Of a DNA stretch of 64,000 nucleotides, positions 1-8,979 are shown piece by piece. The notes under the pieces are model-generated. The model saw only the letters and a program-made list of their open reading frames with translations. It had not been told where the DNA came from and ran no database searches. A program made the translations under genes and the position numbers. Origin of the DNA: an uncultured Erythrobacter sp. (GTDB taxonomy: Bacteria; Pseudomonadota; Alphaproteobacteria; Sphingomonadales; Sphingomonadaceae); the NCBI GenBank assembly GCA_947501215.1, contig CANMUS010000001.1, positions 1-64,000 of the forward strand. The letters run 5' to 3'. The first letter of the stretch is position 1. Each line of letters opens with the position of its first letter.

Positions 1-73
1 TGACCCCTACGGGACTCGAACCCGTGTTTCAGCCGTGAAAGGGCCGCGTCCTAGACCGCTAGACGAAGGGGCC
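1..73 (-). tRNA. tRNA-Glu (anticodon TTC), 3' CCA lies beyond the window edge
   Basis: Read on the minus strand, the sequence folds as a cloverleaf with acceptor stem GGCCCCT/AGGGGTC, anticodon loop CTTTCAC (anticodon TTC, Glu) and T loop GTTCGAA. It has 73 nucleotides to the discriminator A at position 1, so the encoded CCA, if present as in the second copy, is cut off by the window edge. It is identical over these 73 bases to the copy at 126-198, and the two are about 50 bp apart, so they are probably co-transcribed with the upstream copy at 123-198. Confidence 0.95.
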
Positions 74-122: not shown

Positions 123-198
123 TGGTGACCCCTACGGGACTCGAACCCGTGTTTCAGCCGTGAAAGGGCCGCGTCCTAGACCGCTAGACGAAGGGGCC
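123..198 (-). tRNA. tRNA-Glu (anticodon TTC), second tandem copy
   Basis: This is a full 76-nt tRNA on the minus strand: acceptor stem GGCCCCT with AGGGGTC, discriminator A, and an encoded CCA (complement of 123-125). The anticodon loop CTTTCAC gives TTC, glutamate. It is a perfect repeat of the copy at 1-73. A sigma-70-like promoter lies just upstream at 219-247, which fits this being the first gene of a two-tRNA transcript. Confidence 0.97.
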
Positions 199-6645: not shown

Positions 6646-8322
6646 TCATCCGACAGCCGAGTTCGCTGCGCTCAACACCGCCCTCACGCTCGCGGTCGCG
6701 ACGTCTTCGTCGATCCCGCAGCCCCAGATAGTGCGGCCGTCCGCGTCGCGGCATTCGAGATAGGCGGCGGCGCGGCTGTCACGGCCGGTGGTTAGCGCGT
6801 GTTCTGTGTAGTCCACCACTTCCAGTGACAGGCCGAAGGCGTCTTCGATGGTCGAGAGCACGCTGGAGATCAGGCCGTTACCCCGGCCCGAGACAGATTG
6901 CTCCGTGCCTTCGACGGCGATGGTGCCGCTGAACAAGCGCGTGCCGTCCGTCGCGCGGCGTTCTTCGTAATTGACCAGCTGGAAATGCTTGTCCTCGGTC
7001 TGCACGTGATAGGCTTGCTGGAAAGCGCGCCAGATGTCTGCGGCGTTGAGCTCGCGGCCCAGTTCGTCGGCCATGCGCTGGACATGCGGGCTGAAATCGG
7101 CCTGCATTCTTTTGGGCAGCTTGAGGCCCTGGTGCTGCTCAAGCACCCAGGCGAACCCGCCCTTGCCGCTCTGCGAGTTGACGCGGATCACCGCTTCGTA
7201 ACTGCGGCCGAGGTCGGCGGGATCGATGGGCAGGTAAGGCACGCGCCATTGCGGCGAGTTCTGGCTTTCGTGCGCAGCGAAACCCTTCTTGATCGCGTCT
7301 TGGTGGCTGCCGGAAAAGGCGGTGTAGACCAGCTCGCCGCCATAGGGGTGGCGCTGGTGGACGGGTAGCTCGTTGCAATACTCGACCGTCTCGATCACCC
7401 GGTCGATGTCGGAGAAATCGATCTGTGGATCGATTCCTTGCGTGTACATGTTGAGCGCCATGGTCACGAGGCAGCAATTGCCCGTGCGCTCGCCATTGCC
7501 GAACAGGCAGCCTTCTACCCGGTCCGCGCCCGCCATCAGCGCCAGCTCCGCCGCCGCGACCCCGGTGCCGCGATCGTTATGCGTGTGCAGGCTGATCACC
7601 GCGCTGTCGCGGTTGGGCAGATTGCGGATGAAATACTCGACCTGGTCGGCGTAGATATTGGGCGTTGCCGCCTCGACCGTGGCGGGCAGGTTGAGGATGA
7701 TCGGATGCTCGGGCGTGGGTGCCAGGACTTTCATCACGGCCTCGCAAACCTCCAGGCTGAAATCGAGCTCGGCGGTGGAGAAGGTTTCGGGCGAGTACTG
7801 GAAATGCCATTCGGTGTCGGGCTGCTTGCCCGCCTCGTCGCGCATGACCTTCGCGCCCTTCACGGCGATGTCGCGCACCTGATCCTTGCTCATCCCGAAC
7901 ACGACCTCGCGCCAGGCGGGGCTGACGGCGTTGTAGAGGTGGACGATGGCCTGTCTCGCGCCGGTGAGGCTGGCGAAGCTGGTGCGGATCAGGTCTTCGC
8001 GGCTTTGCGTCAGGACCTGCACAATGACGTCGTCGGGCACGCGGCCCGATTGCACGAGGCCGGAGATGAAGTCGAACTCGGTCGCGCCCGCGCTGGGAAA
8101 GCCGACCTCGATTTCCTTCACGCCGATCTCGACCAGCAGGTCGAAGAAACGGTTTTTCTTGTGGGCGTCCATCGGGTCGACGATCGCCTGATTGCCGTCG
8201 CGCAGATCGGTGCTGAGCCAGCGGGGCGGCGCGGTGATCCTGCGGCTCGGCCAGTGGCGGTCGGCCAGCGGAACCTGGGGGAAAGCGGCATATTTGGCGC
8301 TCGGGTCGGAGAGCATGGGCAT
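6646..8322 (-). CDS. leuA: 2-isopropylmalate synthase, long (LeuA2-type) form
   Basis: Catalyses acetyl-CoA plus 2-oxoisovalerate to 2-isopropylmalate, the first committed step of leucine synthesis. At 558 aa it is the long form. Catalytic motifs are visible: STDLRDGNQAIVDPM (about 37-51, Arg and metal Asp), GFPSAGATEFDF, SLHTHNDRGTGVA (metal HxH) and GCLFGNGERTGN. The C-terminal about 120 residues form the LeuA dimerisation/allosteric domain where leucine binds in homologues. An upstream leader peptide rich in leucine codons (8407-8457) and a long-range hairpin suggest attenuation control as well. The start ATG is followed by a second ATG at codon 3. Confidence 0.96.
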   Translation of the reverse strand: MPMLSDPSAKYAAFPQVPLADRHWPSRRITAPPRWLSTDLRDGNQAIVDPMDAHKKNRFFDLLVEIGVKEIEVGFPSAGATEFDFISGLVQSGRVPDDVIVQVLTQSREDLIRTSFASLTGARQAIVHLYNAVSPAWREVVFGMSKDQVRDIAVKGAKVMRDEAGKQPDTEWHFQYSPETFSTAELDFSLEVCEAVMKVLAPTPEHPIILNLPATVEAATPNIYADQVEYFIRNLPNRDSAVISLHTHNDRGTGVAAAELALMAGADRVEGCLFGNGERTGNCCLVTMALNMYTQGIDPQIDFSDIDRVIETVEYCNELPVHQRHPYGGELVYTAFSGSHQDAIKKGFAAHESQNSPQWRVPYLPIDPADLGRSYEAVIRVNSQSGKGGFAWVLEQHQGLKLPKRMQADFSPHVQRMADELGRELNAADIWRAFQQAYHVQTEDKHFQLVNYEERRATDGTRLFSGTIAVEGTEQSVSGRGNGLISSVLSTIEDAFGLSLEVVDYTEHALTTGRDSRAAAYLECRDADGRTIWGCGIDEDVATASVRAVLSAANSAVG

Positions 8323-8366
8323 CGGGAAAGTCTCGGATTGTGCGAAGCGGGAAGAGGTCGGTCGGT

Positions 8367-8419
8367 CCCTTGGGCGCTCAGCGCACCCGGTCCGGCACGC
8401 CAGCTATCACGCCCAAGGG
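8367..8419 (-). promoter_or_regulatory. leuA leader hairpin, candidate transcription attenuator
   Basis: A perfect 10-bp inverted repeat pairs CGCCCAAGGG (8410-8419) with CCCTTGGGCG (8367-8376). The upstream arm overlaps the last sense codons of the leader peptide, so a ribosome stalled at the leucine codons or at the stop would change its availability. A second, smaller hairpin (GG-GCGC / GCGC-CC around TGA, about 8374-8388 on the minus strand) competes with it. No clear U-tract follows, so the terminator form is not proven. This is an inference from layout. Confidence 0.5.
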
Positions 8420-8457
8420 CGCGTAAGTCGCAGAAGCAGGCCGAGTGCAGTTTGCAT
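8407..8457 (-). CDS. leuA leader peptide (leucine-rich, 16 aa)
   Basis: A short frame upstream of leuA reads MQTALGLLLRLTRPWA and then TGA. It has five leucine codons within seven residues (CTC, CTG, CTT, CTG, CTT), placed just before a hairpin whose upstream arm lies in its last codons. This is the classical design of an amino-acid biosynthesis attenuator. The Shine-Dalgarno is poor: TTGGAG ends only one base before the ATG. It stops 84 nt upstream of the leuA ATG. The peptide itself is expected to have no function beyond sensing Leu-tRNA supply. Confidence 0.65.
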   Translation of the reverse strand: MQTALGLLLRLTRPWA

Positions 8458-8550
8458 GCTCCAAGCTATGCTGGGGTGGAACGGGGTTGTAAAGCAAAAC
8501 AGTCTTGGGCATCCCATGAAATTATATTTCACGGATGGGAGAGCTGGGGC

Positions 8551-8979
8551 ATGGCCGACGGGCATTCGCTATACGAGACGATGGGATTGGTGCGGATCGT
8601 TTCCACCGATCCGGAGGGCCGCGCCAGCCTTGAGTACATGGCGAAACCGGAGCAGTGTCATTCGGGCGGCGTGGTGCAGGGCGGCTTCATCAGCGGGTGG
8701 ATCGATGCCGCTATGGCCCATGCGGCGATGGCGAAGAACGGCAGCGGAATCGTGCCGATGACGCTGGAATTCAAGGTCAGCTATTTCGCCCCGACGCGAC
8801 CCGGGCTGGTGGTGGCGGAGGCCTGGGTCGAGCGGCACGGTCGGCAGACCAGTTTCTACGAAGGTCACCTGCTTGACGGCAGAGGCACCGTGCTGGCCAA
8901 AGCGACCAGCACCATCCTGCTCGCCGATATCGAACGCGTGATGGCGGCATCTAAAAGGGCGCGGGAGAGCGACGGATGA
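8551..8979 (+). CDS. PaaI-family hotdog-fold thioesterase
   Basis: A 142-aa protein with the acyl-CoA thioesterase pattern EQCHSGGVVQGGFISGWIDAAMAHAAM: HSGGVVQGG corresponds to the HGG motif loop and the following helix carries the catalytic acidic residue (D). The beta-strands VPMTLEFKVSYFAPTRPGLVVAEAWV follow as in hotdog folds. It probably hydrolyses acyl- or aryl-CoA esters; the substrate is unknown. The start ATG 8551 follows a GGAGAGC/GGGG purine stretch. Its TGA overlaps the start of the epoxide hydrolase gene by 4 bp (ATGA), so the two are translationally coupled. It is divergent from leuA. Confidence 0.85.
   Translation: MADGHSLYETMGLVRIVSTDPEGRASLEYMAKPEQCHSGGVVQGGFISGWIDAAMAHAAMAKNGSGIVPMTLEFKVSYFAPTRPGLVVAEAWVERHGRQTSFYEGHLLDGRGTVLAKATSTILLADIERVMAASKRARESDG

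What the first reader, a model, noticed from the sequence alone, without database searches (positions are those of the whole stretch)
8367..8457. Leucine-rich leader peptide and hairpin upstream of leuA: candidate ribosome-mediated attenuator
A 16-codon frame (MQTALGLLLRLTRPWA) with five leucine codons in seven residues lies 84 nt before leuA. Its last codons form one arm of a 10-bp inverted repeat whose other arm is at 8367-8376. This is how amino-acid attenuators are built. It is too short for most gene finders to annotate, and attenuation of leuA in sphingomonads is not, as far as I recall, well described.
Basis: partly seen in the sequence, partly recalled or inferred. Interest (0 to 1): 0.7.

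Follow-up and report, generated by a model that had tools for sequence, protein, structure and literature searches.

The report
Class-wide leucine-sensing leader before leuA
A tiny leucine-rich reading frame that ends inside an inverted repeat predicted to fold into an RNA hairpin sits just before the leucine-synthesis gene leuA in this bacterium and in many other Alphaproteobacteria, and it likely works as a switch that would let leuA be translated when leucine runs short.

Summary
The 16-codon leader and its 10-bp inverted repeat (P1) are where stated. The same core precedes leuA in 80 of 80 named relatives. Covariance models find it in 253 of 298 genomes of the family, 114 of 385 of the class and, in a phylum-wide draw of 398, in 81 alphaproteobacteria and 2 weak outsiders. 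leuA follows in 96 of 100 fetched loci and in 55 of 60 fetched later, with either of two LeuA types. P1 covaries, also in the later loci. The codon after Pro is a TGA stop in most of the wider class, TAG in many sphingomonads and read-through TGG here, with matching changes in the other arm. Rfam has no match.

A classical terminator is not supported: 7 of 171 loci have a U-tract after the hairpin. Instead, the Leu codons pair with the stretch around leuA's ribosome-binding site better than swapped partners do. I infer translational attenuation, like the actinobacterial LEU element. Regulation itself is untested. In one alphaproteobacterial family, sibling leaders with Ile codons precede ileS and, in one genus, ilvA.

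The parts
8407..8457 (-). leader frame MQTALGLLLRLTRPWA, TGA stop
   Evidence: sequence; same core upstream of leuA in 80 of 80 named loci
8425..8445 (-). five Leu codons CTC GGC CTG CTT CTG CGA CTT; the last three codons (CTN CGA CTT) are the conserved core
8410..8419 (-). P1 5' arm CCCTTGGGCG, inside the last codons of the leader
   Evidence: covariation
8367..8376 (-). P1 3' arm CGCCCAAGGG
   Evidence: covariation
8381..8400 (-). P2, small hairpin inside P1 (8394-8400 with 8381-8387)
   Evidence: fold; helix 2
8428..8445 (-). P0 5' side in the Leu codons: CTCGG (8441-8445), TG (8437-8438) and TGCGA (8428-8432)
   Evidence: fold; duplex z -2.4 against shuffled partners in the window; native against swapped tests
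8332..8345 (-). P0 3' side around the predicted leuA ribosome-binding site: TCGCACA (8339-8345) and CCGAG (8332-8336)
   Evidence: fold
8465..8493 (-). promoter-like hexamers TTTACA (8488-8493), 17 nt, CATAGC (8465-8470), 7 nt before the leader ATG (prediction)
   Evidence: hand-made score without a control; not found by the strict scan
6646..8322 (-). leuA, 2-isopropylmalate synthase, long (leuA_yeast) type, 558 aa

Best explanation
The 16-codon leader ends inside a covarying inverted repeat upstream of leuA and is predicted to be a leucine sensor: a ribosome that stalls at its Leu codons would keep them from pairing with leuA's ribosome-binding site, so leuA would be translated when leucine is short. 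Shown by calls: the frame and its Leu codons, P1 with covariation, the class-wide link to leuA, and native pairing between the Leu-codon stretch and the leuA initiation region that beats swapped partners on average. Inferred, in order: (1) transcription starts at or next to the leader ATG in sphingomonads; (2) with enough charged Leu-tRNA the ribosome reads to the stop codon in or next to P1's 5' arm and leaves; (3) P1, P2 and P0 then fold and lower translation of leuA; (4) with little charged Leu-tRNA the ribosome stalls at CTN-CGA-CTT, covers P0's 5' side and leaves the leuA start open. Loss of translation may further bring Rho-dependent loss of the message.
For: Leu codons and P1 conserved upstream of leuA in 80 of 80 named loci; leuA behind 96 of 100 and 55 of 60 fetched loci. 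P1 covariation: 249 double-change cells against 76 +/- 17 in shuffles, at most 68 when slid; alignment-free, arms of the same locus pair better than swapped arms, z 9.1 with the register fixed (101 distinct arm sets) and 6.6 in held-out loci (49). P0: native duplexes beat swapped ones in the class (n=37, z -5.7), order (n=57, z -4.8), named plus window (n=81, z -6.5) and held-out sets (n=53, z -5.4), and in pooled class plus held-out with swaps kept within GC strata (n=90, z -6.3 and -6.7); no permutation reached the native value in any of these. The signal is centred on windows starting 30-22 nt before the leuA ATG. No U-tract in 164 of 171 loci. Where the gene is ileS or ilvA the codon after CGA is Ile.
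Against: No regulation data. Single loci are often unremarkable: the native partner ranks at a median of 9th of 37 and 22nd of 57. In the window the longest perfect run of P0 is 5 bp, and modelling shows no clear opening of the leuA start on stalling (0.55 free, 0.57 and 0.53 stalled, 0.66 with the ribosome at the stop). Over 90 loci the modelled effect is small: 0.386 free, 0.471 stalled, 0.433 with a control block of equal size. Long perfect runs (8 bp or more) exceed swapped pairs clearly only outside sphingomonads (14 of 90 against 1.8%; 6 of 57 against 4.0%; 1 of 81 against 1.0%). Weak signals remain at some other offsets (partner at +100, 58 of 2000; leader at -60, 23 of 2000). Related loci are not independent. 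Some leaders have few Leu codons (2 or fewer of 7 in 11 of 37 and 17 of 53).
Confidence: 0.58

Rival explanations
1. Rho-dependent transcription attenuation: the leader ribosome governs access of Rho to the unstructured stretch between P1 and leuA, and P0 has only a side role.
For: No intrinsic terminator. The stretch between the 3' arm and leuA is C-rich over G in sphingomonads ((C-G)/length +0.20 in 81 and +0.12 in 53 loci). Rho was proposed for terminator-less Cys leaders in Mycobacterium (PMC1262725, passage seen).
Against: The C excess is nearly absent in the wider class (+0.03 in 37 loci) and the stretch is short (median 45-52 nt). It does not explain why the Leu codons pair with the leuA initiation region.
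Confidence: 0.2
2. Classical ribosome-mediated transcription attenuation with an intrinsic terminator, as in E. coli leuL.
For: Leader with clustered Leu codons next to a GC-rich hairpin; 7 of 171 loci do have at least 5 T in 8 nt after the 3' arm, 5 of them among 37 class loci.
Against: 164 of 171 loci do not, and 0 of 81 among named loci plus window; no terminator-like site in 8200-8650.
Confidence: 0.08
3. The RNA is bound by a regulatory protein or ligand, or the nascent peptide itself arrests the ribosome, and the Leu codons are incidental.
For: Part of the core is conserved as sequence (CGACTTA, GCCC, GGG). A regulatory protein was proposed for the actinobacterial LEU element (PMC1262725, passage seen).
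Against: Peptide ends vary (RPWA*, RP*, GP*, SP*, CP*, HP*) while P1 still pairs. CGA is replaced by a Leu codon in 5 of 37 class and 27 of 53 held-out loci. The sensor codon is Ile before ilvA and ileS.
Confidence: 0.08

Closest known systems
Actinobacterial LEU element upstream of leuA (Seliverstov et al. 2005, PMC1262725; passages seen)
   Same: Leader frame with Leu codons before leuA; no classical terminator; [quoted passage not shown]
   Different: Reported as a pseudoknot with an alternative hairpin; here a nested P0-P1-P2 with the stop codon in or next to P1. Other phylum; its sequences were not held, so homology was not tested
E. coli leuL attenuator (recalled, from no call)
   Same: Leu codons in a leader peptide before leuA
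   Different: Uses a terminator and antiterminator; no terminator is seen here, and Rfam, which was searched whole, gives no match
Alphaproteobacterial attenuators: trpL of S. meliloti (PMC10117765, passages seen) and the ilvIH leader of Caulobacter (PMC4117421, figure legend seen)
   Same: Leader frames before amino-acid genes in the class; the trpL frame is leaderless, as predicted here for sphingomonads
   Different: Described as transcription attenuators; other amino acids and genes
ileS leader CDS CCNA_03934 of Caulobacter crescentus (PMC4117421, one figure-legend passage seen)
   Same: A small frame before ileS; leaders of the present design precede ileS in 13 of 13 exact matches
   Different: Its sequence was not seen, and whether family f70 is that of Caulobacter was not established

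Membership tests
Amino-acid attenuator with leader peptide (general kind) | Short frame with clustered codons of the regulated amino acid | tested here: met
   5 Leu codons in 7 here; at least 3 of 7 in 80 of 81 named loci plus window, 52 of 57 order, 26 of 37 class, 36 of 53 held-out loci
Amino-acid attenuator with leader peptide (general kind) | RNA structure overlapping the frame, conserved by covariation | tested here: met
Amino-acid attenuator with leader peptide (general kind) | Expression responds to the amino acid through leader translation | not testable with these tools
   needs reporters, Ribo-seq
Classical transcription attenuator (leuL, trpL type) | Intrinsic terminator (hairpin plus U-tract) before the gene | tested here: not met
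   none at 8200-8650; U-tract in 0 of 81, 2 of 53, 5 of 37 loci
Actinobacterial LEU element | Leu codons pair with the Shine-Dalgarno region of leuA | tested here: met
   native against swapped partners; weak in single loci
Actinobacterial LEU element | Pseudoknot above the base stem | not tested
   no pseudoknot search was run; the nested P1-P2 helices are supported
Actinobacterial LEU element | Sequence homology to actinobacterial members | not tested
   no actinobacterial sequence was compared
Any Rfam family | Match to a covariance model of Rfam 15 | tested here: not met
   only tRNAs in the window at gathering score; none to E 5 at 8280-8560; none to E 0.5 in 16 relatives

The most novel reading that the evidence does not exclude
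Alphaproteobacteria own a modular translational attenuator with an exchangeable sensor codon: a fixed chassis (CTN, CGA or Leu codon, sensor codon, NNN, CGC-CC running into a hairpin arm) reads leucine before leuA across the class, and isoleucine before ileS and ilvA where CTT has become ATT. The leader outlives the gene it controls: it stands before two LeuA types of only 25-32% identity.
Probability: 0.4. Interest if true: 0.78.

Novelty: new variant of a known kind. Interest (0 to 1): 0.63.

Why it matters
Leucine-codon leaders are a textbook idea, but a leuA leader spread through a whole class, without a terminator and without an Rfam entry, would give Alphaproteobacteria a shared leucine switch that can be tested directly. 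It brings natural experiments: TGA, TAG and TGG exchanged inside a paired arm with compensation, two enzyme types behind the same leader, and Leu-to-Ile sensor exchanges before ileS and ilvA. The actinobacterial LEU element has a similar pairing but gave unclear results on mutation (PMC1262725, passages seen); a second, independent-looking system would help settle how such leaders work.

Tried and rejected
Single-sequence folding as evidence: not informative (z -0.85). Strict promoter and terminator scan: nothing found. Rfam: no match. Intrinsic terminator: rejected on U-tracts. Fusion of leader and leuA frames: in the window both are in one frame with two stops between them, but the distance varies between relatives and is often not a multiple of three, so dropped. 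A +1 slip at CUU-A was weighed by eye and dropped because CTAA variants occur. Nascent-peptide arrest at RP-stop: peptide ends vary. Accessibility modelling: right direction but weak, and not clear in the window. Leader-to-start pairing at ileS (n=13, z -2.8) used approximate start codons and is not relied on.

Rows dropped or doubtful. One search kept 69 of 80 named loci as non-redundant. One search was given the window, 9 of 80 named loci and 84 of the 100 fetched loci (L194, L226, L254, L265 left out as without leuA; 12 more left out by eye as well represented); L225 missed the threshold, so alignment A3 has 93 rows. One search used 94 of 96 loci with leuA (L215, L252 without anchor). Searches lost L200, L171, L179 and L175 (3' arm not recognised): 171 of 175. 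One search also lost L318 of the held-out 53. One search used 53 of 55 (L305, L326 without anchor). Some anchors are off and were left in (the codon before the last Leu is neither Arg nor Leu in 2 of 37 class and 3 of 53 held-out loci). One search chose the arm register that favours the native pair; one search repeats the test without that bias (z 9.1 instead of 11.0). The hexamer score is hand-made, takes the best gap of 3-13 nt and has no control.

Literature. Ten searches of the held library (several lists capped) showed no listed title or abstract start that describes a leuA leader in Alphaproteobacteria. Four papers were opened, passages only: PMC1262725, PMC10117765, PMC4117421, PMC1273637. 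Vitreschak et al. 2004 (FEMS Microbiol Lett 234:357) is a comparative study of attenuators in proteobacteria that PMC1273637 cites for an ilvB leader peptide; I saw only citations of it, did not look it up, and it may describe part of this.

Full report
What is there. On the minus strand, leuA (8322-6646) is preceded by a 16-codon frame (8457-8407) with five Leu codons in seven residues, and by a 10-bp inverted repeat, P1, whose 5' arm lies in the leader's last codons (8419-8410) and whose 3' arm is at 8376-8367. A smaller hairpin, P2, lies inside P1. leuA is the long, leuA_yeast type. The divergent neighbour at 8551 is a hotdog-fold thioesterase.

More than chance. A search with LeuA gave 80 named loci (the best 80 of 215). 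In all 80 the region before leuA holds the same core: CTN CGA CTT or CTA, then CGCCC(T) and the rest of the arm. R1, a covariance model of the window plus 69 non-redundant loci, finds one strong site in the window's genome. It also finds 253 of 298 genomes of the family, 144 of 246 of the order, 7 of them in other families, and 57 of 385 of the class. R2, from 93 rows, finds 114 of the 385. In a phylum-wide draw of 398 genomes it finds 83: 81 in the class and 2 outside it at E 0.003 and 0.009, neither with leuA behind it. How many of the 398 are alphaproteobacteria is not listed. These searches used Infernal's stricter filters, so the counts are lower bounds.

Link to leuA. Of 100 loci fetched around R1 matches, 96 have leuA directly downstream; the other four are L194, L226, L254 and L265. 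Of 60 fetched after R2 was built, 55 have leuA. Of the other 5, two are the matches outside the class, one is a sibling before ilvA (below), and two are weak second matches (E 0.002 and 0.01). The enzyme is the long type in 42 and the short type in 10 of 52 family loci, short in 6 of 6 from other families of the order, short in 36 and long in 2 of 38 class loci, and short in 54 and long in 1 of 55 held-out loci. Cross-matches between the types run at about 25-32% identity. So the leader stands before either enzyme; that the enzyme was exchanged behind it is inferred. Of 16 family genomes without a motif match (taken from those listed, not all), 10 have no match to LeuA and 6 only one at 24-29% identity.

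Covariation. Arm pairs run from CCCTTGGGCG/CGCCCAAGGG through CCCTTAGGCG/CGCCTAAGGG to CCCCTGAGCG/CGTTCAGGGG. In alignment A3, which is fitted to the structure, 95.4% of cells pair, with 249 double changes against 76 +/- 17 in shuffles and at most 68 when partners are slid by 1-3 columns. Without an alignment and with a fixed register, native arms form 9.04 of 10 pairs against 8.47 when swapped (101 distinct sets, z 9.1); held-out loci give the same means (49 sets, z 6.6); no permutation of 5000 reached the native value. An earlier version (z 11) chose registers in favour of the native pair. The codon after Pro is TGA in 30 of 37 class and 42 of 53 held-out loci, TAG in 35 of 57 order loci and TGG in 77 of 81 named loci plus window, and the other arm changes to match. 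The ending RPWA here is most simply read as an older RP-stop whose stop was lost (inferred).

No terminator. In 171 loci, at least 5 T in 8 nt after the 3' arm occur 7 times: 5 of 37 class, 2 of 53 order, 0 of 81 named plus window.

A third pairing, P0. Leu codons such as CTCCTTCGACTT looked complementary to Shine-Dalgarno sequences such as TCGAAGGA. I tested 27 nt around the last Leu codons against the 28 nt before the leuA start. Native duplexes are more stable than swapped ones: class -14.85 against -12.28 kcal/mol, n=37, z -5.7; order n=57, z -4.8; named plus window n=81, z -6.5; held-out n=53, z -5.4. Pooled class and held-out, n=90: z -7.8, and -6.3 and -6.7 with swaps inside GC strata; against dinucleotide-shuffled partners the mean z is -0.66 +/- 0.14. 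No permutation reached the native value in any of these swap tests. With 20-nt partner windows the signal is strongest for starts 30 to 22 nt before the ATG and is gone at 0, +20, +40 and +60; at +8 and +100 it is marginal in one or two sets (held-out 96 and 105 of 3000; class at +100 58 of 2000). Moving the leader segment by 10 nt keeps it and by 20 nt mostly loses it, but the order set still shows it at -20 (2 of 2000) and the class set weakly at -60 (23 of 2000). Perfect runs of at least 6 bp occur in 42 of 90, 23 of 57 and 22 of 81 native pairs against 21%, 20% and 12% of swapped pairs. Against: single loci are often unremarkable (median rank 9 of 37 and 22 of 57), and the named relatives are closely related. 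In the window the longest run is 5 bp, occurring twice, CTCGG with CCGAG and TGCGA with TCGCA; duplex z -2.4.

How it most likely works (inferred). P0's 5' side lies just before P1 and its 3' side after it, so P0, P1 and P2 can form one nested structure that buries the leuA start. A ribosome stalled at the Leu codon before CGA would cover P0's 5' side but not P1; one at the stop codon would cover P1's 5' arm (assumed footprint: 15 nt upstream and 12 nt downstream of the A site). Leucine shortage: stall, leuA open. Leucine plenty: completion, leuA closed. Folding with blocked stretches moves the right way but weakly: 0.386 free, 0.471 stalled, 0.433 with a control block; the window itself shows no clear change.

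Promoter. In named loci plus window, the best-scoring hexamer pair ends 7 or 8 nt before the leader start codon in 56 of 81, which predicts a leaderless or nearly leaderless start, as known for trpL of S. meliloti (PMC10117765, passages seen). The score is hand-made and without control, and the strict scan finds nothing. Outside sphingomonads the leader start itself is uncertain: no in-frame start in 6 of 37 class and 3 of 53 held-out loci.

Siblings with another codon. In genus g388 (family f70) a second copy stands before ilvA (threonine ammonia-lyase) in 4 of the 6 genomes searched, that is in 4 of 4 such second copies fetched, with CGA-ATT in place of the CGA-CTN of leuA leaders and P1 kept. 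Of the other two genomes, one match was not fetched and one locus was cut short. A related element, CGAATTNNNCGCCCGGCGTGA, has 13 exact matches in 120 genomes of that order, all 13 before ileS. Of 10 one-mismatch matches, the 7 fetched show no ileS. In g388 the same type of leader precedes ileS in 5 of the 5 genomes in which ileS was clearly found; one of them, G1226, is where I found it. A Caulobacter ribosome-profiling study names an ileS leader CDS (PMC4117421, passage), which fits, but its sequence was not seen.

What is known. The closest described system is the actinobacterial LEU element. Rfam gives no match. Ten paper searches listed no description of this leader, with the limits given under Tried and rejected.

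Verdict. The feature is certain. Leucine sensing through leader translation is likely. Control through translation of leuA is my preferred mechanism at about 0.58, with Rho-dependent attenuation the main rival.

Noticed in passing
L301, L358, L359, L360 (genus g388, upstream of ilvA): A second copy of the element with Arg-Ile (CGA ATT) in place of Arg-Leu stands before ilvA, with P1 arms kept; the same genomes keep the leuA copy (L300, L372, L373, L374).
   Followed up: partly
L396-L408 and L375-L379 (upstream of ileS): Leaders ending R-I-x-R-P-A-stop with a different P1 (CCCGGCGTGA with CGCCGGG) precede ileS in family f70 genomes.
   Followed up: partly
L319 and L326 (one genome, G1185): The genome has two leuA genes, one short and one long type; both have a match to the leader model upstream, the second weak (E 0.008) and with a different hairpin.
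   Followed up: no
L323 (outside the class, genome G914), motif at 469610-469663 of its contig: A short stretch resembles the core (TTCGACTTACCCGCCCCTG, then TCAGGGG) but no leuA follows; the open frames there look like peptide methionine sulfoxide reductases (by eye).
   Followed up: partly
window 1-73 and 126-198, minus strand: Two tRNA genes with the same Rfam score (58.7 bits), 52 nt apart: possibly a tandem duplicate.
   Followed up: no
L004-type loci (Qipengyuania), between P2 and the P1 3' arm: The P2 3' strand (GGGTGCGC) can also pair with the start of the P1 3' arm (GCGCACCC), a possible alternative to P1 plus P2 in that clade.
   Followed up: no
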